From Trueperella pecoris (GTDB lineage Bacteria; Actinomycetota; Actinomycetes; Actinomycetales; Actinomycetaceae), in assembly GCF_014926385.1 (NCBI RefSeq), contig NZ_CP053291.1:1302001-1366000 (forward strand): a DNA stretch of 64,000 bases, read 5' to 3'. Below the pieces are notes generated by a model. The model saw nothing but the letters and a program-made list of their open reading frames with translations. It made no database searches and was not told where the DNA came from. This document shows positions 27,228-63,667 of the stretch, piece by piece; positions within the stretch are counted from its first letter, which is position 1; every line of letters begins with the position of its first letter. A program made the translations under genes and the position numbers.

Positions 27228-27543
27228 CGCACCCCCTTCTTACTACCCCTACCCTACGGCACGCGCGCTCGCCGTCCGCCAATCAGAAAGGCGTGTATCT
27301 GGGTGAGTTCGCCAACAGCGCGACGCCGTCTCCCGCGGCCCGCGGGCCCACCGGCGGCGTTTCCGTGCCCCACCGGCCACCCGCGCTGTAGTAACCTGAC
27401 CGCCGCTGTACTAAATTACGCCAGATTAGTACAGCGCGAGTCAGATTAATACGGTTTCGGCGGTACGGCCAGCCGGCCCGGCCCAGCCAGCCCGCCACCA
27501 GACCGGCAAGAAAGAAGCGCCCCGGAGGGCGCCTCTTCACAAT
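27228..27543. other. Spacer rplS to lepB
   Basis: 316 bp with no gene. It holds a full copy of the dispersed palindromic repeat (27381-27460), a GCGACGCCGT motif at 27320-27329 that lies 93 bp upstream of the lepB start, and a GC-rich CGCGGCCCGCGGGCC stretch. The end near 27500-27540 lies just past the rplS stop. Confidence 0.6.
27381..27460. repeat. Dispersed nested-palindrome repeat, copy at 27.4 kb
   Basis: The core CGCTGTACTAA (27404-27414), an 11-base loop and TTAGTACAGCG (27426-27436) form a perfect 11-bp stem. It is enclosed by outer arms GTAGTAACCTGACC and GAGTCAGATTAATAC, which pair imperfectly. The ends read CCG and CGG. The same architecture recurs at 56840, 60487 and 63590, and in split form around IS30. 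All copies are intergenic. Confidence 0.85.
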
Positions 27544-27894
27544 TTACGCGTCTGCTCGACGTTCGCGAATCTTCGCAGCCTTGCCGTGACGATCACGCAG
27601 GTAGTAGAGCTTGGCGCGGCGGACGCGGCCACGGGTCACTACCTCGATCGAATCGACATTCGGAGAATGCAGCGGGAACGTACGCTCCACACCGACACCG
27701 AAGGAGGTCTTGCGGACGGTGAAGGTTGCACCGAGGCCGGTGCCGCCCTTGCGTGCGATCACGACGCCCTGGAAGACCTGGATACGGTGGCGCTGGCCTT
27801 CAACGACCTTGACGTTGACCTTGACCGTGTCACCGGCGCGGAAGTCGGGGCGCTCCGTGAGCGATGCCGCGTTAATCTTGTCGATAATGTTCAT
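27544..27894 (-). CDS. rplS: 50S ribosomal protein L19
   Basis: 116-aa ribosomal protein at the subunit interface. It reads [34 protein letters not shown] and [20 protein letters not shown], and ends [19 protein letters not shown]. The ATG at 27894 (MNIIDKIN) matches the family start; an earlier ATG would add five residues. The gene lies 122 bp after trmD. The leader contains GGGCATTTGCCC and CCTGCGTGCAGG hairpins that might serve control. Confidence 0.97.
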
Positions 27895-28016
27895 TATCTT
27901 CTCATCCACCCTGCACGCAGGTCAGAGTGCTTTCCGGGCAAATGCCCGTTCGTTGGAAAGTTCTTGCAGATAGGTCCAGCCCCCTGCGGCAGGCTTTAGA
28001 CCCCGTGCAAGCCATA

Positions 28017-29369
28017 CTAGTTTGGCACATTTGGGCGGATCGCTAAAGTGATATCCTTGTTGACCTGCTCACCCACGATGAAGTCTCGTGTCCCGACGCG
28101 CACGAAGCCCGCCCGCTTGTAGGCGCGGATGGCACGTTTATTGGCAGCGGCGGTTCCGAGCCACACGTATGGTTGACTGCCGTCGGCATGCGTGACGATC
28201 GCCTCCAGCGTCTTGCGCATGAGGTAGTCGAAGATTCCCTTGCCGCGCCAGGGCACGTCCACATAGAACTTCGACAGGTACACCAGTTCACCTTCGCGCA
28301 CGACGCCGTCGAGCACCAGATCCGTTGGCGCTCCAGCCGCGTTCGTCTCGGCGAAGTCGTCGGCGGTGCGTGGAATGAACGCCATCGAGTAGGCGGCGAT
28401 CTGGCCGTCCACGCGAGCGAGCAGGATGAGGTAGCGGGGATCGGCGATATAGCGCGCAAAATCGGCTTCGCTCAGGTGTCCGTCCACGAAGGCCGCAATG
28501 TCCGCCTCATCCATTCCGGATGGGCAGGCGTCCGGGAAGAGGTGGCTTGCAAAGGCGGAGAGTTCCCCGGCGTCATCGGGCGTTGGGGATTGGACGAGGA
28601 TCGGCCGGACCCGATCGTTGACCGCCCACCCCAGCTCGGTCAGCTTGGCGCGGTCCTTCTTGTCGAGGGCGGATGGGTCGAGCTTGGCGATCATGTCGGG
28701 CCGGCGGATGCTGGTGCGTTCGAGTGCGTGGTCACGCCTCCAACGTGCCACCTTGCCGTGATCCCCAGAGGTGAGGACGTCGGGGACGTCGATGCCGCGG
28801 AAGTTGGTTGGCCGGGTGTAGACGGGGTATTCAAGCAGTCCAGCCTCGCCGTGGGACTCTTCCCGCAGGGATTCGGGGTTTCCGATCATGCCGGGCAGGA
28901 GCCGCGCCACGCCTTCGACGAGCACGATCGCCGCCACTTCTCCCCCATTGAGCACGTAGTCGCCGAGCGAGTATTCGATGACTTCCATGCCGGATTGGCG
29001 GTAGTGATCCGCCACGCGCGAGTCGATGCCTTCGTAGCGTCCGCACGCGATAATGAGCTGGTCTGCCTCGGCTAGGTCCCAGCAGGTCTGTTGCGTCAGT
29101 GGCGTTCCCGAGGGCGTCGGTATCGCGAGCACGCTGCGACCGGGCGCGACGACGTCGTCGATCGCTGCGGCCCAGACGTCCGGCTTCATGACCATGCCAG
29201 CCCCACCACCGAATGGGGTGTCGTCGACGGTGCGATGGACGTCGCTGGTCCAATCGCGCAGGTCATGCGTGGCGACGTCAATAATGCCGCGCTCACGCGC
29301 CTTGCCCACAAGGGACAGGTCGAGCACCGAGAAGAACTCGGGGAAGACGGAGACGATGTCGAAGCGCAT
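28017..29369 (-). CDS. trmD: tRNA (guanine37-N1)-methyltransferase TrmD fused to a GNAT domain
   Basis: 450-aa bifunctional-looking protein. Residues 1-240 are a complete TrmD, which methylates G37 of tRNA: RFDIVSVFPEFFSVL, DDTPFGGGAGMVMKPD, the SAM-binding knot ACGRYEGIDSRVADHY, and EYSLGDYVLNGGEVAAIVLV. Residues 260-450 form a GNAT acetyltransferase: LILLARVDGQIAAYSMAFIP, then VDVPWRGKGIFDYLMRKTLE (acetyl-CoA loop) and TAAANKRAIRAYKRAGFVRV. Ordinary TrmD ends near residue 240-250. There is no stop or frameshift between the parts. The start overlaps the rimM stop (TAATG). The role of the added domain is unknown. Confidence 0.95.
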   Translation of the reverse strand: MRFDIVSVFPEFFSVLDLSLVGKARERGIIDVATHDLRDWTSDVHRTVDDTPFGGGAGMVMKPDVWAAAIDDVVAPGRSVLAIPTPSGTPLTQQTCWDLAEADQLIIACGRYEGIDSRVADHYRQSGMEVIEYSLGDYVLNGGEVAAIVLVEGVARLLPGMIGNPESLREESHGEAGLLEYPVYTRPTNFRGIDVPDVLTSGDHGKVARWRRDHALERTSIRRPDMIAKLDPSALDKKDRAKLTELGWAVNDRVRPILVQSPTPDDAGELSAFASHLFPDACPSGMDEADIAAFVDGHLSEADFARYIADPRYLILLARVDGQIAAYSMAFIPRTADDFAETNAAGAPTDLVLDGVVREGELVYLSKFYVDVPWRGKGIFDYLMRKTLEAIVTHADGSQPYVWLGTAAANKRAIRAYKRAGFVRVGTRDFIVGEQVNKDITLAIRPNVPN

Positions 29370-29920
29370 TACTCTCCCGACTCCGCCTGATGCGTCTCTT
29401 CGGAGATAACGAGTTCGTCGGGCGAGAAGAGGCCGGGAGGCGCGTCGATGACCACACAGTTGTCCTCCAGGTCGACCTCGGTGACGATCTCCTTGACGAA
29501 GGGCACGCGCGTGATGACGCCGTCGGGCTCGCGGACGATCAACAGGTCCTGGGCCGGCATGGGCTCAACGCCGACGACGACGCCGAGCTCGTAGCCGTCG
29601 GGGTCCAGCGCTTCGAGGCCCTTGAGCTCGTGGGGGAACCAGGCGTCGTCTTCCAGCTCGTCCTCGTCGGACTCGATGATGAGTTTGACGCCGCGAAGGG
29701 ACTCCGCTCCCGTCCGGTCGTCATATTCCGCGAATCGCACGTAGGCATTGCCTTTGTATTCACGCCGCGAGGCGATGGTGACCGGGCCCATCTCCGCCGG
29801 GTCCGTCTCCAAGGAGGAGCCGACCGCCAGGCGGCGTTCCGGATCGTCGGTACGCACGTCGAGCTTCACTTCGCCCTTCAGGCCGTGTGCTGCCCCGACA
29901 ATCGCCACAGTTAACTGCAT
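29369..29920 (-). CDS. rimM: 16S rRNA processing protein RimM
   Basis: 183-aa 30S maturation factor that binds S19. The N-terminal beta-barrel begins VAIVGAAHGLKGEVKLDVRT, and DPERRLAVGSSL and YVRFAEYDDRTGAESLRG follow. The C-terminal PRC-barrel has DGYELGVVVGVEPMPAQDLL. Its last codon overlaps trmD (TAATG). Located downstream of the rpsP-khpA terminator. Confidence 0.95.
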   Translation of the reverse strand: MQLTVAIVGAAHGLKGEVKLDVRTDDPERRLAVGSSLETDPAEMGPVTIASRREYKGNAYVRFAEYDDRTGAESLRGVKLIIESDEDELEDDAWFPHELKGLEALDPDGYELGVVVGVEPMPAQDLLIVREPDGVITRVPFVKEIVTEVDLEDNCVVIDAPPGLFSPDELVISEETHQAESGE

Positions 29921-29959
29921 AGTTCCCCTTTCGTTCTAGCCATTATCACGCAAAGCAAA

Positions 29960-29982
29960 GGACCCGCCAAAATGGCGGGTCC
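29960..29982 (-). terminator. Intrinsic terminator between khpA and rimM
   Basis: GGACCCGCCA-TTT-TGGCGGGTCC on the minus strand: a perfect 10-bp stem followed by TTTGCTTTG. It lies 13 bp after the khpA stop and 40 bp before the rimM start, so it separates rpsP-khpA from rimM-trmD, perhaps only in part. Confidence 0.75.
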
Positions 29983-29995
29983 CCTACATGTTTGA

Positions 29996-30232
29996 CTATC
30001 GATCAGTTTCGATCACGTCAACGCGTACCGAGCCCTGCGTAGCAAGTGCGCTGATAACCGAGCGCAGTGCCTTGGCCGTTCGGCCGTTGCGGCCGATCAC
30101 GCGCCCGAGGTCCTCGGGATTGACTCGGACTTCGAGGAGCTCACCGCGACGATTGTTGCGCGAGGTAACCTCCACGTCATCCGGATTGTCCACGATTCCG
30201 CGAACGAGGTGTTCCAAGGCGTCAGCAAGCAT
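29996..30232 (-). CDS. khpA: KH-domain RNA-binding protein KhpA
   Basis: 78-aa single KH-domain protein. The GxxG loop appears as GRVIGRNGRTAKALRSVISA near residue 43-62. KhpA-type proteins pair with KhpB/Jag and bind RNA in cell-division and cell-length control in Gram-positives. The ATG overlaps the rpsP stop (TAATG). This rpsP-khpA-rimM-trmD-rplS order is the usual one. Confidence 0.95.
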   Translation of the reverse strand: MLADALEHLVRGIVDNPDDVEVTSRNNRRGELLEVRVNPEDLGRVIGRNGRTAKALRSVISALATQGSVRVDVIETDR

Positions 30233-30687
30233 TAGGCTTCCTCAGCCTCGGCAGGAGCCTCGTCAGCTTCGGCCTCGGCCTCAGCCTTGGCGGCTGCCTC
30301 GGCCTCTTCGCGGGCCTTGGCCTTGTCGGCACGGCGCTTCTCAGCCTCAGCCTGAACAGCCTTGGTGGCCTCCTCACGCTGAGCTGCGACGTCAACAACC
30401 GCGGCCGTCTTCAGGGTGGAGCCACCCTCGAGACCCTTGGCTGCCTGCCAGTCACCCGTGATCTTGAGCTGAGCAAGAACCGGCTCAGTCGGCTGGGCGC
30501 CAACCGAGATCCAGTACCGAGCACGCTCGGAGTTGATGTCGATCACCGAAGGCTCGGTGTTCGGGTTGTAGTAGCCGATCTCCTCGATGACGCGACCATC
30601 GCGCCTCTTCTTAGAATCGACGACGACGACGCGGTAGTGGGCCTCACGGATCTTGCCCATGCGCTTCAAACGAATCTTGACTGCCAC
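30232..30687 (-). CDS. rpsP: 30S ribosomal protein S16 with charged tail
   Basis: 151-aa product. Residues 1-80 are the S16 fold ([20 protein letters not shown], then [19 protein letters not shown]). Residues 95-151 form a tail rich in Ala, Glu and Lys ([19 protein letters not shown], ending [12 protein letters not shown]), typical of actinobacterial S16 and probably helical and partly disordered. It starts at a GTG 10 bases after AGGAG. First gene of its operon. Confidence 0.96.
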
Positions 30688-31045
30688 TTAGCGGTCACTC
30701 CTAGTTCATATTTGGTGGGTTTCAGCCGGAAACGTGGGAAATCATGCGTCTGGCTGTTACCCGGACTGAGACTTGGCCGAGTTGAGAGGGGCTCGACTTC
30801 GTCTGAGTACAACGTTCAATGATGCCAGATTCCGCCAACAAATGGCAGTCCACAGGCAGTTTCCCTTCGGTGGTAGTGGTCACGCCAGAGCCGTCGATTT
30901 TTTGTCTGCCCTAAACCTACTTTCCCGCGCCCCTCAAACCGCATTCTCGCCCCGCCAAATGGCGCCGTTTCACCGGCATGAAGTGTGCGAAATGCCCCTG
31001 CGGCGCAGATTCACATTGCTCTTCTAGGGCGCAAGAATTGTCCCC
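30688..31045. promoter_or_regulatory. Divergent spacer rpsP / CDF transporter
   Basis: 358 bp without a supportable gene. It must hold promoters for rpsP (minus) and the metal exporter (plus). GCCCCTGCGGCGC and nearby GC-rich short hairpins occur around 30950-31010. No recognised metal-regulator operator or riboswitch was identified. Confidence 0.4.
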
Positions 31046-31990
31046 ATGACGCAAAACATCTCGCAAACGCAGAACCTGACCAAGTTCGCGTGGCTCTCCA
31101 TCGCGGTGGCCGTGCTGACGATTGGCTTGAAGGCCGGCGCCTACCTGGTCACCGGATCGGTCTCCCTTCTGTCGGATGCGATGGAGTCGGTGGCCAATCT
31201 CGTTGCGGCGGTTATCGCGCTGATCTCGCTCATGCTCGCCGCCAAGCCGGCGTCGTCCCGCTACACGTTTGGCCGCTCGAAGGCGGAGTATTTCTCGGCG
31301 GCCGTCGAGGGAGCCATGATCTTTGGTGCCGCCGCGCTCATCATCTTCGCCGCGGTCACACGCCTGGCCAGCCCCCGGCCCGTGGAACAGCTGGGCATCG
31401 GCCTGGCAATTTCGGCCCTGGCGGCGCTCATCAACGGCGCGGCGGGCATGTATCTGATTGGCGTGGGTCGCAAGAAGCGCTCGATCACGCTCGAGGCTGA
31501 CGGCAAGCACCTGCTCACCGACCTGGTGACGTCGGCCGGCGTCATCTTCGGACTGTTGCTAGTGATGCTCACGGGCTGGCAGATCCTGGATCCGATCATC
31601 GCTATCGTCGTCGCGCTCAACATCTTATGGACGGGGTTGAGCCTGCTTCGTTCCTCCCTCGCCGGCCTCATGGACGTCACGCTTCCCGACGCCGAAAACG
31701 ACGCCATTATCGACGTGCTCCACGAGTATGCGCAGCCCGGTGTGATCGCATTCCACGGCCTGCAGACTCGCCAGGCTGGCCGAATCCGCCACATTAACGT
31801 CGACGCGCTCGTGCCCGGCTCATGGACCGTTAAGCAGGGCCACGACCTCGCGATGAAGGTCGAGTCGTCGATTCAATCCAAGCTCGATGACACGTTCATC
31901 GTCATCCACGTTGAGCCAATTGAGGACCAAGCCTCTTACGATGACATTCCCGAGGGCTTCATCCCGCTCGGCGACGAGGAGTGGTTCTAG
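31046..31990 (+). CDS. Cation diffusion facilitator metal exporter
   Basis: 314-aa membrane protein with six hydrophobic segments and a C-terminal cytosolic domain (from about residue 205: DVTLPDAENDAIIDVLHEYA). Proton-coupled efflux of divalent metals is the family function. In the transport-site segment the sequence is SLLSDAMESVANL, so the two positions usually D or H/D are E and N here; the partner motif is HLLTD (H and D). An E/N/H/D site is known from a branch of CDF proteins whose metal is not certain here. Convergent with the amidohydrolase gene. Monocistronic. Confidence 0.92.
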   Translation: MTQNISQTQNLTKFAWLSIAVAVLTIGLKAGAYLVTGSVSLLSDAMESVANLVAAVIALISLMLAAKPASSRYTFGRSKAEYFSAAVEGAMIFGAAALIIFAAVTRLASPRPVEQLGIGLAISALAALINGAAGMYLIGVGRKKRSITLEADGKHLLTDLVTSAGVIFGLLLVMLTGWQILDPIIAIVVALNILWTGLSLLRSSLAGLMDVTLPDAENDAIIDVLHEYAQPGVIAFHGLQTRQAGRIRHINVDALVPGSWTVKQGHDLAMKVESSIQSKLDDTFIVIHVEPIEDQASYDDIPEGFIPLGDEEWF

Positions 31991-32040
31991 ACCCCGCAGA
32001 CTCCGCTGAGAGCACCGAGGGCCCTCGAGGACCCGGGGTT

Positions 32041-33138
32041 CTAGAGCACCCGCACACCGCCGGCGAAGATGGCAACCGGATCGCGCAGAGTTTCGATGTT
32101 CTTTTCGGGATCCTGGCGATAGACGACGAGGTCTGCGGGCTCGCCGTCGGCCCACACGTCAAAACCGATCTTGGCCCGCCCGCCGTAGCTGGCGGCGGCC
32201 ATGACGACGTCGGCCGGCATGCCGTCCTCGACCGCGTCGATGAGCTCGTCCACAAGGTTGACCTCGGCGACGTTCTCCGCCGTGTCGGAGCCCATGAGAA
32301 AATGCGTGCCCGTCTCAACCATGAGCGCCAAGTGCTCTGTGCGCACGCGATCCATTCCCAACATGCGTTCCACGTAGGCGGGGAATTTGACGCCTTTCGC
32401 CGCGAATTCTGGGAAGCGCCGAATCTGATGGACCGTCGGAGTCACGAGGATTCCGCGCGCGGACGCCTCGAGGAGGTGATCGCGCGTCATGCCCGTTCCG
32501 TGTTCGATCCCGTCAACCCCGGCCGTGAGCAGGTCATCGACCGTCTCGGTGGCGAAGGTGTGGACGGTGACCTTGCCTCCGGCGTCGTGAACCGCGGCGA
32601 CGGCGTCGATAAGCGCCTGGCGCGGCCACAACGGCGTGGTGTCCCCCACCTCGCGATCGATCCAATCGCCGACGATCTTGATCCAGCCGTCTGCGCGCTC
32701 GTATTGGCGCACGGCCTCGGCGGGCAACTGCCCGGGTTCGACGTCAACGGCGAGGTGACGCTCGTAGCGCTTGAAACGTCCAATGTGCTGGCCACTGTGC
32801 ATGACGCGTGCCAGGCCCGGCTCCCAGGCGACCTTCGGGTCGTGCTGGCCGCCAGCGTCGCGCACCACCGTCACCCCGTGGCGTGCTAGGACATCGAGGC
32901 GGCGGCGAATCTCACCGGTTGCCAGTGGCTCAGGCGTTCGGCGCATGCCGGGGTGGGTGTGAACATCGAGCAGGCCCGGATAGGCAAAGCCCGATATCGT
33001 CTCGGTCACCGCGCGCGGCTCCAAGCCGGCGGCACCGCCCGCGTGGGCTTGCGGGCGGGCAAGGACGAGCCGCCCATCGACGATCCAAGCCTCGCGCGCG
33101 TCCGTCCCCCGCAGGGTGCCAACCAGGTGAATGGACAT
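32041..33138 (-). CDS. Amidohydrolase-family metal-dependent hydrolase
   Basis: 365-aa cytosolic protein of the amidohydrolase superfamily. Metal ligands: YPGLLDVHTHPGM (HxH near residue 60), WIKIVGDWI (the Lys position near 154), VTVHTFATE (His near 190), DGIEHGTGM (His near 212) and FLMGSDTAE (Asp near 283). The closest general pattern is imidazolonepropionase-like or prolidase-like hydrolases; the substrate is unknown. It follows ffh by 5 bp and may be co-transcribed with it. Confidence 0.85.
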   Translation of the reverse strand: MSIHLVGTLRGTDAREAWIVDGRLVLARPQAHAGGAAGLEPRAVTETISGFAYPGLLDVHTHPGMRRTPEPLATGEIRRRLDVLARHGVTVVRDAGGQHDPKVAWEPGLARVMHSGQHIGRFKRYERHLAVDVEPGQLPAEAVRQYERADGWIKIVGDWIDREVGDTTPLWPRQALIDAVAAVHDAGGKVTVHTFATETVDDLLTAGVDGIEHGTGMTRDHLLEASARGILVTPTVHQIRRFPEFAAKGVKFPAYVERMLGMDRVRTEHLALMVETGTHFLMGSDTAENVAEVNLVDELIDAVEDGMPADVVMAAASYGGRAKIGFDVWADGEPADLVVYRQDPEKNIETLRDPVAIFAGGVRVL

Positions 33139-33143
33139 GGGCC

Positions 33144-34679
33144 CTACTTGAGGAACCTCGCGAGGTCATCCATGTTGACATCGCCCTTGCCCGGCTGCGC
33201 CCCGAACGCGTTGCCCTTGGGCGCCTCGCGCTGGGCGGCCAGCTCTTGCTGGCGGCGCTTGGCCGGGTTGCCGGAACGCCCCTTCTTCGAGCCCGACGCC
33301 TTCTTTTTCTTCGGCTGCTTCTTGGTGTAGCCCCCGCCCATGCCAGGCATGGCAGGCATACCCGGAATGTTGGGCATGCCACCGCGAGACATCTGCGTCA
33401 TCACCTTCTTGGCCTGCTCGAAGCGCTCCACCAGCTGGTTGACCTCGGTGACAGTGGTTCCAGAACCGTTGGCGATACGCATCCGGCGCGAGCCGTTGAG
33501 GATGCGGGTGTCGGCGCGCTCGGCCTTCGTCATCGACTTGACGATGGCTTCCTGCCGGTCGATCTCGCGCTCGTCGAAGTTCTCGAGGGCGTCGCGGTAC
33601 TGCCCCATGCCGGGCAACATTCCCATGATCTTCTTCATCGAACCCATCTTGCGCAGCTGGTTGAGCTGGTCGAGGAAGTCGTCGAGGGTGAACTCGCCCT
33701 CGGCCATCTTCGAGGCCAGGTCTTGAGCCTGCTCCTCGTTCCACGTCTTTTCGGCCTGCTCAATGAGGGTCAGGAGGTCGCCCATGTCGAGGATGCGGGA
33801 GGCCATGCGGTCCGGGTGGAAGCGCTCGAAAGCGTCAAGCTTTTCGCCGGTCGAAGCGAACAGGACGGGCTGGCCAGTCACGCCACGGACGGAAAGCGCG
33901 GCACCGCCGCGGGCATCGCCGTCGAGCTTGGAGAGTACGACGCCGGTGAAACCCACCCCGTCACGGAAGGCCACCGAGGTGTTGACCGCGTCCTGGCCGA
34001 CCATCGCGTCGAGCACGAAGAGGATTTCGTGGGGGTTGACGGCGTCGCGGATGTCGCGGGCCTGGGCCATCATCTCTTCGTCGATGCCGAGGCGCCCGGC
34101 CGTGTCAACGACGACGACGTCGAACGTGTTGTCCTTGGCGAACTGGATCGAGTTACGGGCCACCTCCACGGGGTCGCCGACCCCGTTACCCGGCTCGGGT
34201 GCGAAGACGTGCACGCCCGCCTGCTCGCCCACCACCTGGAGCTGGTTGACGGCGTTTGGGCGCTGGAGATCGGAGGCCACGAGGAGCGGACGGTGGCCGT
34301 TTTCACGTAGCCACCGGCCGAGCTTGCCGGCGAGGGTCGTCTTGCCCGCGCCCTGGAGGCCGGCGAGCATGATGACGGTTGGGGCCTTCGGCGCCCAGTT
34401 CAGTTCGCGGGCCTGCCCGCCGAGGACCTCGATGAGCTCGTCGTTGACGATCTTGACAACCTGCTGGGCCGGGTTGAGCGCCTGGCTCGCCACCGCACCC
34501 ACTGCCTTCTCGCGTATCGCGGCGGTGAACTGACGCACCACCGGCAAGGCCACGTCGGCATCGAGTAGCGCGCGGCGAATATCGCTGATAACCGCCTCGA
34601 CGTCCTTTTCAGAAAGACGGCCTGCCTTGCGCAGGTTTCGAAGCGAACCGGTGATCCGATCAGAAAGCGAGTTAAACAT
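33144..34679 (-). CDS. ffh: Signal recognition particle protein Ffh
   Basis: 511-aa GTPase that binds signal peptides with 4.5S RNA. The NG domain shows G1 GLQGAGKTTLAGKLG near residue 107, then VDTAGRLGIDEEMMAQ (G3) near 190, TKLDG-like SKLDGDARGGAAL near 245. The Met-rich M domain (from about 330) has MGMLPGMGQYRD and the RNA-binding SRRMRIANGSG. A Gly/Met-rich segment (GMPNIPGMPAMPGMGGGY) precedes a Lys-rich C-terminus. It partners with FtsY, whose gene is immediately upstream. Confidence 0.98.
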   Translation of the reverse strand: MFNSLSDRITGSLRNLRKAGRLSEKDVEAVISDIRRALLDADVALPVVRQFTAAIREKAVGAVASQALNPAQQVVKIVNDELIEVLGGQARELNWAPKAPTVIMLAGLQGAGKTTLAGKLGRWLRENGHRPLLVASDLQRPNAVNQLQVVGEQAGVHVFAPEPGNGVGDPVEVARNSIQFAKDNTFDVVVVDTAGRLGIDEEMMAQARDIRDAVNPHEILFVLDAMVGQDAVNTSVAFRDGVGFTGVVLSKLDGDARGGAALSVRGVTGQPVLFASTGEKLDAFERFHPDRMASRILDMGDLLTLIEQAEKTWNEEQAQDLASKMAEGEFTLDDFLDQLNQLRKMGSMKKIMGMLPGMGQYRDALENFDEREIDRQEAIVKSMTKAERADTRILNGSRRMRIANGSGTTVTEVNQLVERFEQAKKVMTQMSRGGMPNIPGMPAMPGMGGGYTKKQPKKKKASGSKKGRSGNPAKRRQQELAAQREAPKGNAFGAQPGKGDVNMDDLARFLK

Positions 34680-34715
34680 GTACGACCTCAGGTAAGGAAT
34701 TGAACTGGCAAAAGT

Positions 34716-34757
34716 CTACCCCACGGCGGCCCGTCGTCTCAGAGCGCCGTGGGGTAG
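34716..34757 (-). terminator. Intrinsic terminator after ftsY
   Basis: CTACCCCACGGCG, a 16-base loop, then CGCCGTGGGGTAG: a 13-bp stem followed by ACTTTTGCC on the minus strand. It lies 9 bp after the ftsY stop and 37 bp before the ffh start. Confidence 0.75.
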
Positions 34758-34765
34758 GTGGAGTT

Positions 34766-35995
34766 TTAGGACAGGAGGGAGTCGACGAAGTCCTGCGGGG
34801 AGAAGGGTGAGAAGTCGTCCGCACCCTCGCCCAGGCCGACGAACTTGACCGGCACACCCAACTCGCGCTGGACCGAGATGACGATTCCGCCCTTGGCCGT
34901 GCCGTCGAGTTTGGTCAACACGATGCCTGTGATTCCCGCGACCTCGGCGAACACCTTCGCCTGACTCATGCCGTTCTGACCGGTGGTGGCGTCAAGAACG
35001 AGGAGCACCTCGGCCAAAGGAGCACCCTTTTCCATGACGCGCTTGATCTTGCCCAGCTCATCCATGAGGCCCGCCTTGTTCTGGAGGCGTCCGGCCGTGT
35101 CGACGATGACGACGTCGGTGCCCGCCTCACGAGCGATCTTCACAGCTTCGAAGGCTACCGAGGCGGGGTCTGCTCCCTCGCGGTCCGATCGGACGACGTC
35201 GACGCCGACTCGCTCGCCCCACGTCGAGAGCTGGTCGGCGGCCGCGGCGCGGAACGTGTCGGCTGCGCCGAGGACGACGCTCTTGCCTTCGGCAACCAGG
35301 AGGCGTGCGAGCTTGCCCGTCGTCGTCGTCTTGCCCGTGCCGTTGACGCCCACCATGAGGAGTGAGGCGGGGTGGCGGGTGCCCTCTTCGTCAATCGAGG
35401 GCTCGAGGTTGAGCGAGCGATCCGCGTCCGGGCCGACAAGCCTGATGAGCTCCTCGCGCAGGATCGCGCGGACCTCTTCCGGATCCGTGGTCCCCCTGAC
35501 CTTGGTCTGGGTGCGCAGGGTATCCATGAGCTCGGTGGTGGCGTCGAGGCCGACGTCAGCCATGAGGAGCGTGTCTTCCAGCTCCTCCCAGTCGGCCTCA
35601 GAGAGATCTCCGCGGGAGAGGATCGACAACAGCGTACGGCCAAGGACGCCCGAGTTCGCGAGGCGCCCGCGCAGGCGCTCCATGCGCGAGCCGACCGCCT
35701 CGGGGACCTCAACCGAGGTGTCGAGCGTAGAATCGGGATCCGCCGGCGCAGATTCGAGGCCCGGCAATTCGGTGTCCGGAATCTCCGGGACGCTGGGCTG
35801 GGCAGCACCGGGCTGGGCTACCCCACCCGCGGGCGTTTCGGCTTCGCCAGCCTCAGGCTCGCCGGCCTCAATCTGCTCGCGCTTGTCCCACGAGATCTCG
35901 GCCGAGGAAGATCGGCGGCGCAACCCCACGGCAACGCCTGCGCCGATGAGAACAGCGATGACGGCAATAAGAATGATGATCTGTTGTGTAGTCAC
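34766..35995 (-). CDS. ftsY: Signal recognition particle receptor FtsY
   Basis: 409-aa membrane-associated GTPase. Unlike E. coli FtsY, the actinobacterial form has an N-terminal transmembrane helix: [20 protein letters not shown] at residues 4-23. An acidic/Pro-rich linker (to about 105) follows, then the NG domain with [34 protein letters not shown] and [14 protein letters not shown]. The frame extends to 36043, but a GTG at 35995 places the anchor helix at the N-terminus and is preferred. Confidence 0.95.
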
Positions 35996-36096
35996 GTCTC
36001 TAGTGTCCCGTACATCGAGGATTTTGCCAAAGTTTTCGGGCAATTTTCACCCACGGCGGGGTGCGCCAGCCAGTGATCACGCGAACCAATTCCGTC

Positions 36097-38003: not shown

Positions 38004-38031
38004 AAATCCTGCCTGTGCAAGGTTCCCTTCG

Positions 38032-54855: not shown

Positions 54856-54877
54856 TTTCGCACCCCACTTACGATAC

Positions 54878-54895: not shown

Positions 54896-54914
54896 ATTTA
54901 ATTAAGGAGCATCG

Positions 54915-56744: not shown

Positions 56745-56839
56745 TGGTGCGAAGAGGCCGAAAGGCGGGGGCGCGGGCCGGGTTCCGCGCCCCCGCCTTT
56801 CGCCGAAACCGGCCATCGCACCCGGGCCCTTCGCCGAAA

Positions 56840-56913
56840 CCGCACTAAGCTGATCGGCGCTGTATTAAAATACGCCAGATTAATGCAGCGCGGAGCAGCT
56901 TACTACAGCGCGG
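56840..56913. repeat. Dispersed nested-palindrome repeat, copy at 56.8 kb
   Basis: Outer arms ACTAAGCTGATC and GAGCAGCTTACT (10 of 12 pair) enclose CGCTGTATTAA...TTAATGCAGCG (one wobble). The first 16 bases (CCGAAACCGCACTAA) match the copy at 63590. It lies in the convergent spacer between the fadD-type gene and the chorismate mutase gene. Confidence 0.8.
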
Positions 56914-56939
56914 GCGGGCCGGGCCGGTTGCGACCGCCC

Positions 56940-57239
56940 CTACTCGCCGTTCTTTTCCGCGGCGATGCGCTCGTGATGGTGGATCACCTCAGCCACAATA
57001 AACTTTAAGAACTTCTCAGCAAACACCGGGTCAAGGTCGGCTTCGACGGCAAGGCGGCGCAGACGCTCCACCTGGCGTTCTTCGCGCGCGGGGTCGGCCG
57101 GCGGAAGATCGCGCTCGGCCTTAAGAATGCCAACTTGTTGCGTGCAGCGAAAACGCTCAGCAAGAATGTGGACGAGCGCAGCGTCCAGGTTGTCGATCGT
57201 CTTACGGAAGCCCTCGAGCTCCGCGGGAATATCAGCCAT
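56940..57239 (-). CDS. Chorismate mutase (AroQ fold, stand-alone)
   Basis: 99-aa all-helical protein. FRKTIDNLDAALVHILAERF resembles the AroQ N-terminal helix with the Arg and Asp active-site residues. RCTQQVGILKAERDLPPADP follows, then REERQVERLRRLAVEADLDP and FAEKFLKFIVAEVIHHHERI. It converts chorismate to prephenate in Phe/Tyr synthesis. The ATG at 57239 follows GAGGAAGA. Actinobacterial AroQ of this size can work with DAHP synthase as partner. Confidence 0.9.
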   Translation of the reverse strand: MADIPAELEGFRKTIDNLDAALVHILAERFRCTQQVGILKAERDLPPADPAREERQVERLRRLAVEADLDPVFAEKFLKFIVAEVIHHHERIAAEKNGE

Positions 57240-57302
57240 CGCGTCTTCCTCTTCCTCGGGCATCTAGCCCTGCCATCTTATGACCTCGAGAAGGGCAATG
57301 GC

Positions 57303-58574
57303 CTACGCGCTCTTATTTTTCCGACTGGTGAGAACGAGCCGAGGCTCCGAGCTACCATTGACGGCGTCCTCATCGATGAGCACCTTCTCGACGTCGTCGC
57401 GCGATGGAATATCAAACATCAACTCACGAAGCAGATTCTCCATGATCGAACGCAAACCGCGGGCGCCCGTGCCGCGGGCAATCGCCTCCCGGGCAATCGC
57501 CTCAAGCGCGCCATGGGTGAACTCGAGCGTGACGCCGTCGAGCTCAAACATCTTCTGGTACTGCTTGGCCAGTGCGTTGCGTGGAGTCTGAAGAATCTCA
57601 ACAAGATCGTCAACAGTGAGGTCATTGACTGTAGCGATCACAGGCAAACGTCCCACCAGTTCGGGAATCAGTCCAAACTTGTGGAGGTCCTCCGGAGTGG
57701 TCTGCTTGAGCAGCGCGCCCGCGTCCTCTGCTTCGTGCAGAGACGAACCGAAGCCGATACCTCGCCGTCCCGTGCGCGAGGAAACGATTTCCTCCATGCC
57801 CGCAAACGCGCCAGCGACAATGAACAACACGTTCGAGGTGTCGATGTCGATGAACTCCTGCTGTGGATGCTTGCGCCCACCCTGCGGGGGAACAGCCGCA
57901 ACCGTGCCCTCGATAATCTTCAGCAACGCCTGCTGGACGCCCTCACCAGAAACGTCGCGAGTGATCGAGGGATTCTCGCTCTTGCGGGAAATTTTGTCAA
58001 TCTCGTCAATATAGATGATGCCCCGCTCGGCACGAGCAACGTCGCCGTCCGCTGCCTGAATGAGCTTCAGGAGAATGTTCTCCACATCCTCGCCGACGTA
58101 GCCCGCCTCCGTCAAAGCCGTGGCGTCCGCAATAGCAAACGGAACATCGAGAATTTTCGCCAGCGTCTGAGCCAAGTACGTCTTGCCCGTGCCCGTGGGG
58201 CCAATCAGCAAAATATTCGACTTGCCGATCTCCACATGATCGGCATCCTTCTTCGCGTCAGACACAATCCCCTGCGCCCGAATACGCTTGTAGTGGTTAT
58301 AAACCGCCACGGAAAGGGTGCGCTTGGCGCCGTCCTGACCAATCACGTACTCGTTGAGGAAGTCATAAATCTCGCGCGGCTTAGGGAGCTCCGCCTCCGA
58401 TTCGGCAGCAGCATCCGCAGCCCCAAATTCTTCCTCAATGATCTCGTTGCACAGCTCGATGCACTCATTACAGATGTAGACGCCCGAGCCCGTAATCAGC
58501 TTACGAACCTGACGCTGGCTCTTTTGGCAGAACGAACACTTCAGGGTGTCAGCCGCATCGGCGGTACGAGTCAT
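57303..58574 (-). CDS. clpX: ATP-dependent protease unfoldase ClpX
   Basis: 423-aa AAA+ unfoldase that feeds substrates into ClpP. The N-terminal zinc-binding domain has C-x2-C ([13 protein letters not shown]) and a second pair ([13 protein letters not shown]). Walker A is [20 protein letters not shown] near residue 115 and Walker [14 protein letters not shown] near 175. The [20 protein letters not shown] and ClpP-binding GFG (IGFGS near 270) parts follow. It is on the same strand and next to clpP2-clpP1, separated by a 208-bp spacer with a hairpin. Confidence 0.97.
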
Positions 58575-58681
58575 TGCCTAACCTCTTTCATCAACGCCAT
58601 CTCATTCCACACCATATCGACGCTAAGAGCCAGTATGGCACGCCAAGCGTCATTCTTCTGTGGCACAGCGCCTACGATGAA

Positions 58682-58703
58682 GGGCGACGCCGTCGCGTCG
58701 CCC
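58682..58703 (-). terminator. Perfect hairpin between clpP2 and clpX
   Basis: GGGCGACGC-CGTC-GCGTCGCCC, a perfect 9-bp stem with a 4-base loop, 80 bp after the clpP2 stop. It also contains the GACGCCGTC core. No U-run. Possible terminator or attenuator. Confidence 0.55.
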
Positions 58704-58782
58704 TATCGCTACCCGCACCTATTCTTGGCGAGGCTTTCGCCACCCCGGGCGAGGTATCTATGCTCGCCCAGCGACGGCGTCG

Positions 58783-59481
58783 TTAACCCTCAATCGCCTG
58801 ACGCGAAACCTTGCGCGAAACGAGCACCTGGTCGACGATGCCGTACTCCTTGGCCTGCTCGGCGGTGAGGATCTTATCGCGAGAAATGTCCTTCTCCACA
58901 GTCTCCGGGGCTTGACCCGTGTGAGCAGCCAGGGTATCGATCAGCCATTGGTTCATGCGATCCATCTCCTCAGCGATGATCGCAATATCCGAGGCCTGGC
59001 CCTGCGCCCCCTGCATCGCCGGCTGGTGGATCAGCACGCGCGCATTGGGCAACGCAAGACGGCGCCCGGGCGAACCGCCCGCGAGCAGCACCGCAGCAGC
59101 CGACGCGGCCTGGCCCAAGCAAACCGTCTGAATCTCCGGCTTGACGTACTGCATCGTGTCATAGATGGCGGTCAACGCCGTGAACGAACCGCCGGGCGAA
59201 TTGATGTACATCGTGATCGGCGACTCGGGGTCCATCGACTCCAACACGAGAAGCTGGGCCATCACGTCGTCAGCAGAAGCGTCATCAACCTGAACGCCGA
59301 GGAAGATAATACGATCCTCAAACAGCTTCGCATACGGATCCTGGCGCTTGTAGCCATAAGGCGTACGCTCTTCGAAACTCGGCAGGATGTAACGATTAGA
59401 CGGCATCTGGGGCGCCGCACCACCCGGCAGCGTGAGGCCGTTTACTCCGGCCATGGACATGGGAAGGGAAAGTCCTGTCAT
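58783..59481 (-). CDS. clpP: ATP-dependent Clp protease proteolytic subunit ClpP2
   Basis: 232-aa serine protease subunit. The catalytic Ser is in TVCLGQAASAAAVLLAGG near residue 125, the His in LPNARVLIHQPAMQGAQG near 150, and the Asp in TGQAPETVEKDISRDKILTA near 205. It has a 30-residue N-terminal extension (PMSMAGVNGLTLPGGAAP). In actinobacteria ClpP1 and ClpP2 form one mixed tetradecamer. The start is 12 bp after the clpP1 stop. Confidence 0.97.
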   Translation of the reverse strand: MTGLSLPMSMAGVNGLTLPGGAAPQMPSNRYILPSFEERTPYGYKRQDPYAKLFEDRIIFLGVQVDDASADDVMAQLLVLESMDPESPITMYINSPGGSFTALTAIYDTMQYVKPEIQTVCLGQAASAAAVLLAGGSPGRRLALPNARVLIHQPAMQGAQGQASDIAIIAEEMDRMNQWLIDTLAAHTGQAPETVEKDISRDKILTAEQAKEYGIVDQVLVSRKVSRQAIEG

Positions 59482-59493
59482 GTTGTGCCTACC

Positions 59494-60129
59494 TTAGTTC
59501 TCTTCCAGGGTCGCAGACGAAGCGCCACGATCCACACCACCGCCGCCAACGACGGACGAGGAGCTTTCAATGATGTGATCGACGAAGCCATACTCGAGGG
59601 CCTCCTGAGCGGTGAACCACTTGTCGCGATCCGAATCCTCGAGGATCTGCTCCACAGACTTGCCCGTGTGCTTGGCATTGAGCGCCGAAAGCTCTTCCTT
59701 CATCTTCAAGATGAGGTCAGCATTAATTCGGATCTCCGTTGCCGTGCCCTGCACACCACCAAGCGGCTGGTGCATGAGAACGCGAGTGTGCGGAGTGATG
59801 TACCGCTTACCCTTCGCGCCCGCCGTCAGCAGGAACTGGCCCATCGACGCCGCCAGGCCCATGCCCACAGTTGCCACGTCGGGCTTGATGTACTGCATCG
59901 TGTCGAAGATCGCCATACCCGCCGTGACCGAACCGCCCGGCGAGTTGATGTAAAGATAAATGTCCTTCTCCGGGTCCTCAGCGGCAAGTAGGAGAAGCTG
60001 AGCGGAAATCATGTTCGCCAACTCATCCGTGACCTGGTCGCCGAGCCAGATGATGCGCTCCTTCAGGAGACGGTTAAAAATCGAGTCGCCGAGGCCAAGT
60101 GCTTGGCCTCCAACTACTGCGTGTGGCAT
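59494..60129 (-). CDS. clpP: ATP-dependent Clp protease proteolytic subunit ClpP1
   Basis: About 211-aa serine protease subunit. The Ser is in [20 protein letters not shown] near residue 104, the His in [15 protein letters not shown], and the Asp in [20 protein letters not shown]. Two ATGs are possible: 60135 lies only 3 bases after GGAGG, and 60129 lies 9 bases after it and is preferred. First gene of the clpP1-clpP2 operon, with an ECF-type promoter candidate 180 bp upstream. Confidence 0.95.
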
Positions 60130-60135
60130 CTTCAT

Positions 60136-60442
60136 GCCCCTCCTTCACCCTTCGCGGGAATTTGATGGGTTTCACCTCGACATTCACGGCGCCTCGCGGC
60201 GCTTCGGAGGCCTCTCACCTCCCTTCGGCACCTCGAATCGAGTCCGACGCTCGACTTCCGTGTGAATGTGCAGTGGGTCTACTCCCCGTTTCACTCAACC
60301 GATATTAACGAAGAGCCAGCCAGGATCCTTCCCAACTCGACACCTTTTCGCTGTTGGCACAGTATCGCCGAGCTTGGGCGACGCCGGCGCCTGTGGGACG
60401 GTTAGCGGCGGGTTGACACTGACGCCGGCGGCGGGGTAACGG
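60136..60442. other. Upstream region of clpP1
   Basis: About 300 bp without a gene. It contains the ECF-type promoter candidate (60307-60333) and GGCGCCTCGCGGCGC-like short hairpins near 60190. ACAGCGAAAAGG is present near 60350, but I could not complete a ClgR operator. Confidence 0.5.
60307..60333 (-). promoter_or_regulatory. SigH/SigR-type ECF promoter candidate for clpP1P2
   Basis: On the minus strand GGGAAG is followed after 17 bp by CGTT (equivalently GGAA-N18/19-GTT), the pattern of SigH/SigR redox-stress promoters. clpP1P2 is known to be SigH/ClgR-controlled in Corynebacterium. The leader to the clpP1 start would be about 165-175 nt. Confidence 0.5.
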
Positions 60443-60496
60443 CGGCAGGTGCCCGTTGCCCGCGCTGTCCGGCAGGTGCCCGTTGCCCGCGCTGTA
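60443..60496. repeat. 27-bp tandem duplication next to repeat copy
   Basis: Two adjacent copies of a 27-bp unit (60443-60469 and 60470-60496) beginning CGGCAGGTGCCCGTTGCCC and ending CGCTGT, identical but for the last base. The second unit ends inside the left arm of the palindromic repeat at 60487. Confidence 0.8.
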
Positions 60497-60565
60497 CTAA
60501 GCTGCTCCGCACCCTATTAAAGTGGCGTAAATTACTACAGCGCGGGCCACCTTAATACAGCGGGA
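60487..60565. repeat. Dispersed nested-palindrome repeat, copy at 60.5 kb
   Basis: The left outer arm CCGCGCTGTACTAAGCTGCTC is clear. The inner left arm is degenerate (CCTATTAA), while TTACTACAGCGCGGGCC and TTAATACAGCGG provide the right arms. Located downstream of tig, in the spacer before clpP1. Confidence 0.75.
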
Positions 60566-60759
60566 GCAAACCCGGGCCCACGCCACGGCCCCTTCAAACA
60601 CCGGCGGCGATCCCTAGGTGAACTCAGGCGAACCCCGGCCCCAGACGAACCAGGCAGCCCCATGCGGGCTCTCAGACATACCCAAGCCTGCCGGCCCGCA
60701 AAGCAAAGCGCGGAGGCGTTCAACCGAACTCCCCCGCGCCCTGCATAACGCTATAGGCT

Positions 60760-62331
60760 TTATGCCTCGAGCTTGGCGATGAGGGTCTTGCGGCCCTTAC
60801 CTGCCTTCTCCGCCTCGAGGACGCGCGCCTTCTCGGCGTCGTCGGCCTTGGCAACGTAGTCGAGAACCTCGTCGACCTTGTGGTCGGCAGGATCGAAGTC
60901 ACCCGCCGCGCCAGCCGGAGCCGCGGTCGCCTCAGCCTCAACAACCTCGGCTTCAACAGCCTCGGCCTTCGGCTCAGCCTTCTTAGCCGGCTTCGCGGCA
61001 GCCTTCTTCGCGGGCTTGGCACCGAACTCTGGGGTCTCCTCGTTCTCGGGCTTCTCGCCAAGGATCGCGTTGACGTCCACTGCCTTGCCGTTCTCGTCCT
61101 TCACCTGGGCGAGGCGCAGAGCCGCCATGACAGCCTTGTTGCGGGCAAGCTCACCAGCGAAGGCGTTGATCTGACCGGCCTGCGCGGCAGCCTGGACGAA
61201 CTGGTTCGGGTCCATGCCGTACATCTGGGCCTGGGTCACGAGGAAGTCGAGAAGCTCTTCCTGCGACACCTGGACCTTGAACGCCTCAGCATAGGTGTCA
61301 AGGAGCAGCTGGGTGCGCAGAGCCTCTTCGACGTCGCCGCGGATCTCTTCGGCGTGCGGGTCGTCGGCGTCCTTGCCCTCGTTCTGCAGATGCGAGGCGA
61401 TCTCTTCGTCGATGACGCCCTGCGGCAACGGAAAGTCCGAGGCCTCGATGAGCTGGTCAACAAGCTTCTGGTATGCGCCCGACAGCTGCGAGTTCGCCTT
61501 GGACTTCTCAGCGTTCTCACGCAGGGAGGTCTTCAGCTCGTCAATCGTGTCGAACTCGGAAGCGATCTGCGCGAAGTCGTCGTCGGCGTCGGGAAGGACA
61601 GACTCCTTGACAGAGTGAACCGTGATGGTCACGTCAGCCTCTTCACCTTCGTGCTCGCCTCCGGCCAGCTTGGCCTTGAACTCGACCGTGGAGTCAGCCT
61701 TGGCGCCCTTGAGCGCCTCATCCTGGCCCTCAAGCATGTTGCCATCGCCAATACGGTACGAAACGCCCGCGACGTCGTCGACTTCCTCGTCACCAATCTT
61801 GGCCACCATGTCCATGCTGACGTAGTCACCTTCGGCGGCTTCGCGCTCGACGGTGGTCAGGGTCGCGAAGCGCTCACGCAGGGCGGTCAGCTCCGCCTCG
61901 ACGTCGTCGTCGTTGACCTCGACAGCAGGCACCTCAACGGTGAAATCGGCCGGGTTCGGCATCCAGATCTCCGGGCGGACGTCCACCTCCACGGTGAACT
62001 TCAGCGCGGTCACGTCGTCCTTGCCCTTCATCTCGGGGACCTCGTCGATCGAGACCTCGGGACGCGACATCGGCACGATGCCCGCCTCGGCGACTGCCGC
62101 CTGGTAATACTTGTCGAGGTTGTCGTTAATGGCCTGCTCAATGATGTAGCCGCGACCAATCTTGGACTCGACCACGCGACGCGGCGCCTTGCCCGCGCGG
62201 AAGCCCGGGATGTTGACCTGCTTGGCCAGCTCCTTGGCAGCCTTGTCGTAATCGGCTTCAAATTCCTTGGCGGGAACCTCGACGCTCAACTTGGCGCGGG
62301 TCTCGCTCAGGTTCTCTACGATCTGCTTCAC
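60760..62331 (-). CDS. tig: Trigger factor with extended C-terminal tail
   Basis: 523-aa ribosome-associated chaperone and prolyl isomerase. The ribosome-binding signature NIPGFRAGKAPRRVVESKIG lies near residue 36-55. The FKBP-type domain (about 155-245) reads AAEGDYVSMDMVAKIGDEEV, and the C-terminal chaperone arms follow to about 430. Beyond these is a Lys/Ala/Glu-rich tail of 90 residues (KPAKKAAAKPAKKAEPKAEA) ending in DHKVDEVLDYVAKADDAEKA plus a basic helix. Usual length is 430-480 aa. The GTG at 62331 is chosen because VKQIVENLSETRAKL is the family N-terminus. A TATTAT box lies at 62407-62412. Confidence 0.96.
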   Translation of the reverse strand: MKQIVENLSETRAKLSVEVPAKEFEADYDKAAKELAKQVNIPGFRAGKAPRRVVESKIGRGYIIEQAINDNLDKYYQAAVAEAGIVPMSRPEVSIDEVPEMKGKDDVTALKFTVEVDVRPEIWMPNPADFTVEVPAVEVNDDDVEAELTALRERFATLTTVEREAAEGDYVSMDMVAKIGDEEVDDVAGVSYRIGDGNMLEGQDEALKGAKADSTVEFKAKLAGGEHEGEEADVTITVHSVKESVLPDADDDFAQIASEFDTIDELKTSLRENAEKSKANSQLSGAYQKLVDQLIEASDFPLPQGVIDEEIASHLQNEGKDADDPHAEEIRGDVEEALRTQLLLDTYAEAFKVQVSQEELLDFLVTQAQMYGMDPNQFVQAAAQAGQINAFAGELARNKAVMAALRLAQVKDENGKAVDVNAILGEKPENEETPEFGAKPAKKAAAKPAKKAEPKAEAVEAEVVEAEATAAPAGAAGDFDPADHKVDEVLDYVAKADDAEKARVLEAEKAGKGRKTLIAKLEA

Positions 62332-62470
62332 TATTCTCCACTCGGGTTGGGGGACGTTGGCGTCCATTTCTAGCTACACGCGTGCCCACGGCACACAACA
62401 CCGTTCATAATAGAACAATTCCGCGCCATTCCTTACATTCAGCGTCATGAAAGGAGACACAAGGCTCACG

Positions 62471-62481
62471 CACGACGCCGT
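62471..62481 (-). promoter_or_regulatory. CACGACGCCGT motif upstream of tig
   Basis: Exact 11-mer, 140 bp before the tig start and about 60 bp upstream of the TATTAT box. It reads ACGGCGTCGTG in gene orientation. Confidence 0.35.
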
Positions 62482-62553
62482 TGGGCCCAGTTCGGCGTCC
62501 AGCCCGGTCGGCTTGTGGACGCCTGGGGAGGGCGCGAAAGGCGCTGAGGGGCG

Positions 62554-63507
62554 CTAAAACAGTGCCACCTTCTGCGCCGGCGGAAATATCTCGTCAAGCG
62601 CGGCGCGGTCGTCCTGATTCAGTTCCAGCTCGAGCGCTTTCGCGTTCGACTGAATCTGCTCCGGCTTCGTCGCCCCGGCAATAATCGACGCCACCGGTTC
62701 CTGATGGGCGAGCCACGCAATGGCGACGTCGGCCTGCTTGAAGCCGCGCTGCTGACAAAAGTCGCGATAGGCGCGCAGTTGGACCATGTCGGCGGCCTTG
62801 AGCTTGGGGTCGCCGTCCTTGAGCCGGCCACCTTCGGGAACACCATCAGTATATTTGCCGGTCAGGAGCCCCGCCGCGAGCGGGAAATACGGCACAAGCC
62901 CAAGGCCGTAGTGGCGCGAGGCAGGGACGATTTCCTGCTCCGCTCGCCTATCGATCAGATTGTAGTGGTTCTGCGTGGCCACAAGCTTGCCCCGACTCGC
63001 CAGCTCCGCCGTGGCGGCCGTCTGCCAGCCTGCCATATTCGACACCGCGTAGTAGCGGATCTTGCCTTGGTCAACCGCGGTTTCGAGGGCGTCCACCGTC
63101 TCCTCGAGGGGTGTGTGGGCATCGGGCGAGTGGTAATAGTACAGGTCGATGTAGTCCGTGCCGAGTCGCGCGAGCGAATCCTCAAGACGCGCCAACATGT
63201 ACCGGCGCGAGCCGCGAGCCACGCTCGCCGATTCACCCTTGAGTGGCATACCGAATTTGGTCGCAATGACAACCTCGTCCCGCCTGCTACCCAGCGCCTT
63301 GCCGAGCAGTTCCTCTGAGAGGCCGGGGCGCTTGCCGTAGACGTTCGCCGAGTCGAAGTACGTGATGCCAGCGTCGAGAGCCGCATTGACGACGGCGGTC
63401 GCGCCCTTTTCGTCCTCGCTCGACGTACCTTGGCGGCCGAGGTTGTTTGCACCGTATCCGAGAGCCGAGACCACGAGTCCCGAATTCCCCATGCGTCGGT
63501 ATTCCAT
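62554..63507 (-). CDS. Aldo/keto reductase family oxidoreductase
   Basis: 317-aa NADPH-dependent reductase of the TIM-barrel AKR family (YhdN/Kv-beta-like group). Active-site Asp and Tyr lie in FDSANVYGKRPGLSEELLGK near residue 50, Lys in VVIATKFGMPL near 80, and His in DLYYYHSPDAHTPLEETVD near 118. The C-terminal NADP contact is ASIIAGATKPEQIQSNAKAL near 280. The ATG at 63507 follows GAGAGGAA; a start five codons earlier is rejected. The substrate is unknown. Monocistronic. Confidence 0.93.
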   Translation of the reverse strand: MEYRRMGNSGLVVSALGYGANNLGRQGTSSEDEKGATAVVNAALDAGITYFDSANVYGKRPGLSEELLGKALGSRRDEVVIATKFGMPLKGESASVARGSRRYMLARLEDSLARLGTDYIDLYYYHSPDAHTPLEETVDALETAVDQGKIRYYAVSNMAGWQTAATAELASRGKLVATQNHYNLIDRRAEQEIVPASRHYGLGLVPYFPLAAGLLTGKYTDGVPEGGRLKDGDPKLKAADMVQLRAYRDFCQQRGFKQADVAIAWLAHQEPVASIIAGATKPEQIQSNAKALELELNQDDRAALDEIFPPAQKVALF

Positions 63508-63589
63508 CTTCGTTCCTCTCATGGACCGCCGTGGCGTTGCGCGAGGAGGCGCCGCGGTGGGCGTTTCGCGCTGAGCGCGGCCGGCGTTG

Positions 63590-63667
63590 CCGAAACCGCA
63601 CTAACCTGTTCCGCGCTGTAGTAAATTGCAGCAATGTAATACAGCGGGAATCAGCTTACTACAGCGG
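63590..63667. repeat. Dispersed nested-palindrome repeat, copy at 63.6 kb
   Basis: CCGAAACCGCACTAACCTGT begins the outer arm. The inner CGCTGTAGTAA...GTAATACAGCG pairs at 9 of 11 positions, and the right outer arm is CAGCTTACTACAGCGGG. It lies between the aldo/keto reductase start and tRNA-Pro. The region downstream of tRNA-Pro on the minus strand contains it, so it may affect that transcript. Confidence 0.8.

What the first reader, a model, noticed from the sequence alone, without database searches (positions are those of the whole stretch)
27381..63667. Dispersed intergenic repeat built from nested palindromes
Four copies (27381-27460, 56840-56913, 60487-60565, 63590-63667) share a 75-80 bp plan. 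An inner hairpin CGCTGTANTAA/TTANTACAGCG with a short loop is enclosed by a second pair of arms of the type ANTAAGCTGATC/GANCAGCTTANT, with CCG...CGG ends. A possible fifth copy is split around IS30. All copies are intergenic, and arms vary while pairing is largely kept. That pattern fits a REP-like element or MITE, or a family of structured RNA/terminator elements. I know of no named family with this sequence.
Basis: partly seen in the sequence, partly recalled or inferred. Interest (0 to 1): 0.72.

Follow-up and report, generated by a model that had tools for sequence, protein, structure and literature searches.

The report
Phase-locked palindromic repeats in an actinobacterium
An 83-bp hairpin-forming DNA repeat, built from four copies of one short motif at strictly fixed spacing, is scattered between the genes of this bacterium and two sister species; it behaves like a small mobile element, an insertion sequence uses its exact centre as a landing site, and no partner enzyme that could move it has been found.

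Summary
The four window copies belong to a family of about 52 mapped loci: about 43 uninterrupted and 9 interrupted by an IS30-family element. The 83-bp unit has four half-sites (CGCTGTANTAA) at fixed 20/22/20-bp pitch, two forward and two inverted. No pitch of 19, 21 or 23 bp was seen. The arms form a hairpin, and freely varying positions covary. All mapped copies are non-coding and favour convergent or 3' positions. Nine of ten IS30-family copies sit at the exact centre, and each duplicates the central 3 bp. Two congeners carry the family with changed half-sites but the same geometry; six others, and all other genera searched, lack convincing copies. The window copies are missing from the orthologous gaps examined. 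There is no Rfam match and no Y1/RAYT transposase in the genus, so this is REP-like but not a GTAG/RAYT REP. The best explanation is a non-autonomous mobile palindromic repeat that needs pairing of its arms; the mobilising enzyme is unknown. A side result: several species of another genus of the family carry analogous 20-bp-phased inverted arrays with a different half-site (TGCACGACC), so the architecture may be a broader class.

The parts
27379..27461 (.). Element 1, 83 bp, between lepB and rplS (both -). Half-sites: 27384-27394 (+), 27404-27414 (+), 27426-27436 (-), 27446-27456 (-, degenerate)
56833..56915 (.). Element 2, 83 bp, between convergent genes: AMP-binding enzyme (+, ends 56744) and chorismate mutase (-, ends 56940). 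Half-sites: 56838-56848 (+, CCGAAACC-type end), 56858-56868 (+), 56880-56890 (-), 56900-56910 (-)
60485..60567 (.). Element 3, 83 bp, between tig and clpP1 (both -). Half-sites: 60490-60500 (+), 60510-60520 (+, CACCCTATTAA variant), 60532-60542 (-), 60552-60562 (-); left flank tandemly duplicated
63589..63671 (.). Element 4, 83 bp, between tRNA-Pro (-, 63732-63808) and an aldo-keto reductase gene (-). Half-sites: 63594-63604 (+, CCGAAACC-type end), 63614-63624 (+), 63636-63646 (-), 63656-63666 (-)
12839..12876 (.). Left half of the fifth copy (long-spaced variant): half-site 12839-12849 (+) plus 27 nt up to the IS; its last 3 nt CCG are the target duplication
12877..14346 (-). IS30-family insertion sequence, 1470 bp, transposase 12884-14302 (-), inserted at the exact centre of the fifth copy
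14347..14384 (.). Right half of the fifth copy: duplicated CCG (14347-14349), 27 nt in all, half-site 14374-14384 (-)

Best explanation
These are copies of a non-autonomous, mobile, REP-like palindromic repeat. The unit is 83 bp: two tandem half-sites facing two inverted ones at a rigid 20/22/20-bp pitch (about two helical turns), with mutually complementary arms. Shown: the family, the rigid geometry, the hairpin pairing with compensatory changes, absence from called genes, lineage restriction, missing copies at orthologous gaps, and exact-centre targeting by an IS30-family element. Inferred: the unit spreads in trans through an unidentified protein that reads the phased half-sites and needs the arms paired, as an extruded cruciform or a single-stranded hairpin. 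The copies are otherwise near-neutral and survive mainly downstream of genes. The IS30-family element is a secondary parasite that uses the palindrome as a safe landing site.
For: Family size and control counts. Spacing: same-strand pitch 20 bp in 36 pairs and never 19 or 21; opposed pitch 22 in 33, 42 in 31, 62 in 10 pairs, one at 40; no diverging pairs. Covariation: 0/500 shuffles reach it in G000 and across three species; freely varying arm positions pair 70% within a copy against 57 +/- 2% between copies. None of 52 loci overlaps a called gene; 22 convergent, 21 tandem, 4 divergent against 17/77/41 control gaps. Only three congeners carry it among 213 family genomes, apart from a few weak matches. 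Window copies are missing from matching gaps in G005, G008, G006 and G001. IS insertions at the exact centre, 9 of 10 copies.
Against: No transposase or other driver was found, and transposition itself was not observed. No target duplication or precise empty site could be shown, because the compared spacers have diverged too far. At least one locus is shared by G000 and G005, so some copies are old. Symmetry of the arms could also be kept by templated correction of quasi-palindromes rather than by a need for pairing. In G006 alone covariation is not above shuffles, with only 11 very similar copies.
Confidence: 0.6

Rival explanations
1. The elements are double-stranded binding sites of a chromosome-organising or regulatory protein: four half-sites on one face of the helix bind a multimer, and copies are gained and lost as sites of that protein.
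For: Rigid two-turn pitch with no length changes; an analogous 20-bp-phased array family with another half-site in a different genus, whose spacers do not covary within copies.
Against: Spacer positions with no preferred base still covary across the arms, which duplex recognition would not need. Copies favour convergent gaps and avoid divergent ones, unlike operators.
Confidence: 0.17
2. The elements are RNA stem-loops in 3' regions that end transcription in both directions or protect mRNA 3' ends, retained for that function.
For: Stable folds in most copies, covariation, 3' and convergent bias; published REPs show the same bias and are thought to be transcribed (PMC3733652).
Against: No U-tract beyond one weak consensus match among seven found in the region, with about six expected by chance. 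Elements 1 and 2 lie beyond separate strong hairpins that look like the native terminators. Orthologous genes in congeners manage without the element. The locked 20/22/20 spacing is not needed for a stem-loop.
Confidence: 0.15
3. The element is a MITE derived from, and moved by, the IS30-family element of the window.
For: Close physical association: 9 of 10 IS copies lie in the repeats.
Against: The IS ends (GGGAGATTCAGGGGGTCGATGCA) bear no likeness to the repeat ends. The transposase is absent from G005, which has many repeats, and only a distant 41%-identity fragment is in G006. The IS copies are near-identical and so younger than the diverged repeats.
Confidence: 0.03

Closest known systems
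REP/BIME elements: GTAG-tagged REPs with RAYT (TnpA_REP), and CGTC-tagged REPs (Di Nocera et al. 2013, PMC3733652)
   Same: Dispersed intergenic palindromes, convergent and 3' bias, lineage-specific families, used as targets by insertion sequences; CGTC REPs likewise lack a known transposase.
   Different: 83 bp rather than 20-40 bp, four phased half-sites, no consistent unpaired GTAG or CGTC tag, no Y1 transposase anywhere in the genus, and an actinobacterial host: the catalogue's text has no word beginning 'actino'.
Correia elements (Neisseria MITEs; described in PMC3898611)
   Same: Short, dispersed, non-autonomous, palindromic ends, intergenic.
   Different: Correia elements have 26-bp terminal repeats and a TA target duplication; no such duplication was shown here, and the whole unit, not just its ends, is palindromic.
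IS30-family target hot spots and REP-targeting insertion sequences (PMC9333248, PMC1525189)
   Same: IS30 inserts into nearly palindromic hot spots; several other insertion sequences target REPs.
   Different: Here the target is one dispersed repeat family, hit at its central triplet in 9 of 10 copies.

Membership tests
GTAG REP mobilised by RAYT | Y1 tyrosine transposase (PF01797) in the genome | tested here: not met
   0 matches in own genome and in all 9 congeners, while five control genomes ring
GTAG REP mobilised by RAYT | Unpaired GTAG tetranucleotide at one end | tested here: not met
   Ends are CGCTGTA-, CCGAAACC- or GCGCACC-type; GTAG occurs only inside paired half-sites of some copies
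CGTC REP | Unpaired CGTC tetranucleotide at one end | tested here: not met
   No CGTC at either end of the aligned copies
REP-like element in the broad sense | Multi-copy, intergenic, hairpin-forming, 3'/convergent bias | tested here: met
MITE | Terminal inverted repeats matching those of an autonomous transposon of the genome | tested here: inconclusive
   Whole unit is an inverted repeat, but no transposon with these ends was found; only the IS30-family element (ends differ) and Y1 enzymes were tested
MITE | Target-site duplication or precise empty site | tested here: inconclusive
   Element-free orthologous gaps exist but have diverged too far for base-precise junctions
Known RNA family | Match to an Rfam family | tested here: not met
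   Only tRNA in the window and in other element loci
IS30-family insertion sequence (the element in the fifth copy) | HTH_38 plus rve transposase, terminal inverted repeats, short target duplication, palindromic target | tested here: met

The most novel reading that the evidence does not exclude
The window repeat is one dialect of a wider class in this bacterial family: inverted arrays of short half-sites locked at a 20-bp pitch. Each group of species has its own half-site (CGCTGTANTAA; GCKGCACTAA; TGCACGACC in another genus; perhaps CCAGCACGT), co-evolving with an unknown recognition protein that disperses the arrays without a RAYT transposase.
Probability: 0.3. Interest if true: 0.78.

Novelty: new variant of a known kind. 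Interest (0 to 1): 0.55.

Why it matters
The published catalogue of tagged REPs mentions no actinobacterial family, and REP spread is credited to Y1 transposases. This family has multiplied and turned over in a genus with no Y1 transposase. It therefore points to another, unidentified dispersal enzyme, and its locked spacing gives a clear handle for finding it. It also gives a clean natural target system for an IS30-family transposase: nine insertions at the same central triplet.

Tried and rejected
Plasmids, phages and viral contigs: no copies. Weak model hits in other genera: one is an ordinary palindrome, one led to the TGCACGACC arrays, and one (L167) was not examined. A gene between two such arrays (L184, L189) is not an obvious transposase (read by eye only). 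Papers on palindromic or miniature repeats in actinobacteria and Actinomycetaceae: none found on point. The gene calls, and the window rows, used a wrong sequence for the window after alignment files had been written; they are superseded. The G005 flank result does not depend on that error.

Full report
WHAT IS THERE. The four reported copies are real. The genome holds 124 exact copies of the half-site CGCTGTANTAA, against 3 of the reversed control, and 39 inner palindromes with at most 3 mismatches, against 0. Laid out in register, each element has four half-sites, two forward then two inverted. Over 163 half-units, same-strand neighbours are 20 bp apart in 36 pairs and never 19 or 21. Opposed half-units are 22, 42 or 62 bp apart (33, 31, 10 pairs), with one at 40. 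No diverging pair was seen. Ends vary: CGCTGTA-, CCGAAACC- or GCGCACC-type. A second subfamily keeps the outer half-sites 62 bp apart with a different middle; the fifth window copy belongs to it.

PAIRING. In 39 aligned copies without gaps (A1), 79% of cells over 34 pairs are standard pairs. The covariation score is 0.178 against 0.141 +/- 0.009 in shuffles, 0/500 reaching it, and sliding the partner by 1-3 columns collapses it. The number of pairs with a change on both sides is not above shuffles in that set; the signal lies in which letters co-occur. Examples are G-C 17 against C-G 15 at columns 24/60, and U-A 12, C-G 6, G-C 6 at the free base of the half-site. With G005 and G006 copies added, 94 cells change on both sides against 67.5 +/- 6.2 (0/500). 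Arm positions free to vary pair 70% within a copy against 57 +/- 2% between copies. This is not seen within G006 alone, where 11 copies are too similar. Copies are related, so these numbers lean towards significance, but many variants in different combinations support a real constraint or a symmetry-keeping process. Most but not all single copies fold better than shuffles as DNA and RNA.

WHERE IT SITS. Using a codon-based gene caller on the surroundings (mostly 5-kb stretches), none of 52 loci overlaps a called gene. 22 are convergent, 21 tandem, 4 divergent and 5 unassigned, against 17/77/41 among other gaps in the same stretches (convergent p = 3e-6, tests). Gene ends facing the element are 3' in 68 cases and 5' in 31. 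The caller is simple, some stretches were poorly called, and the control counts are biased because stretches were chosen around elements; against an assumed 20% convergent the p-value is still 3e-5. Elements 1 and 2 lie beyond separate strong hairpins that look like the native terminators.

DISTRIBUTION AND TURNOVER. A model from G000 alone finds copies only in G005 and G006 among 98 relatives. A three-species model over 213 genomes of the family finds at least 11 places in G006 and only a few weak matches elsewhere. G006 uses GCKGCACTAA half-sites with the same 20/22/20 geometry. The window copies are missing from the matching gaps of G005, G008, G006 and G001 (beside element 4 the gene order itself differs, so that site is weaker). 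At least one locus is shared between G000 and G005. So copies are gained and lost over genus-level time, while some persist.

THE IS30-FAMILY ELEMENT. There are ten full copies, nine with an identical intact transposase and one with an internal stop; it is an IS30-family protein. Nine lie in these repeats: eight in canonical elements with exactly 7 nt on either side, and one in the long variant with 27 nt on either side. Every insertion has a 3-bp duplication, which in these nine is the central triplet. The tenth lies in what looks like a second repeat. IS30 is known to use nearly palindromic hot spots (PMC9333248) and REPs are known IS targets (PMC1525189). The behaviour is thus of a known kind, unusually clean here. 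The IS is not the source of the repeat: its ends differ and G005 has no copy.

MECHANISM. The best reading is a non-autonomous mobile palindrome. The rigid pitch of about two helical turns suggests a protein reading several half-sites on one face. The covarying spacers suggest that the arms must pair at some stage. Both together fit a recombinase or transposase acting on a cruciform or single-stranded hairpin. That step is inferred. No Y1 transposase exists in any of nine congeners, the window's genome included, so the RAYT model does not apply. Other transposase families were not surveyed.

A WIDER CLASS? A weak model hit led to another genus where TGCACGACC occurs in 3+3 inverted arrays at a 20-bp pitch. 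G157, G171, G175, G179 and G186 have about 30-42 such pairs per strand direction, and G156, G172 and G174 fewer; congeners of the window have none. The backwards control pattern itself scored 37 in G153, hinting at a third half-site. Spacers there do not covary within copies, so the hairpin constraint is shown only for the window's genus. Common descent of the two classes is not shown; the shared 20-bp pitch may be convergence.

OPEN POINTS. The driver is unknown. Movement has not been seen. Flank duplications at CGCTG-type ends (18 of 35, against 5 of 26 at CCGAAACC-type ends; 28 of 84 overall against 1 of 101 intergenic windows) are unexplained and do not recur in G005. The organism could not be named with these tools.

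Noticed in passing
L166, L183-L199 (another genus of the same family): TGCACGACC half-sites in 3+3 inverted arrays at exactly 20-bp pitch with a 7-nt centre, in several species, with 30-42 pairs in the richest genomes.
   Followed up: partly
G153 and G177 (control columns): The backwards control pattern (CCAGCACGT-N11-CCAGCACGT) scored 37+37 in G153 and 8+9 in G177 but 0-2 elsewhere: perhaps a third half-site dialect at the same pitch.
   Followed up: no
L200-L202 (G156): Arrays of GTACGACC-type half-sites at 20-bp pitch that point outwards from the centre, the opposite polarity to the other species.
   Followed up: no
L085, L092, L096, L099 (G005); L103, L074 (G000): A second repeat of about 300 bp, with two GACAGTTCTTTTGA motifs and a promoter-like TTGAAA-18-TATACG, often next to the palindromes; 42 matches in G005, 28 in G008, 23 in G007, 13 in G006, 3 in G000.
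   Followed up: partly
window 60440-60500 and flanks of other copies, e.g. L017, L022, L025: Short tandem duplications of flanking DNA that run into the first bases of the CGCTG-type end, strongly enriched in G000 and not in G005.
   Followed up: partly
L184, L189, L198: A gene for a 371-residue protein (in L184 and L189), by eye with an endonuclease-like (DUF559-type) C-terminal region, is flanked on both sides by TGCACGACC arrays about 1.5 kb apart, at what looks like the same locus in three species.
   Followed up: partly
L015 (G000, near 622237): A truncated palindrome abuts sequence that reads by eye like a phage-type gene.
   Followed up: no
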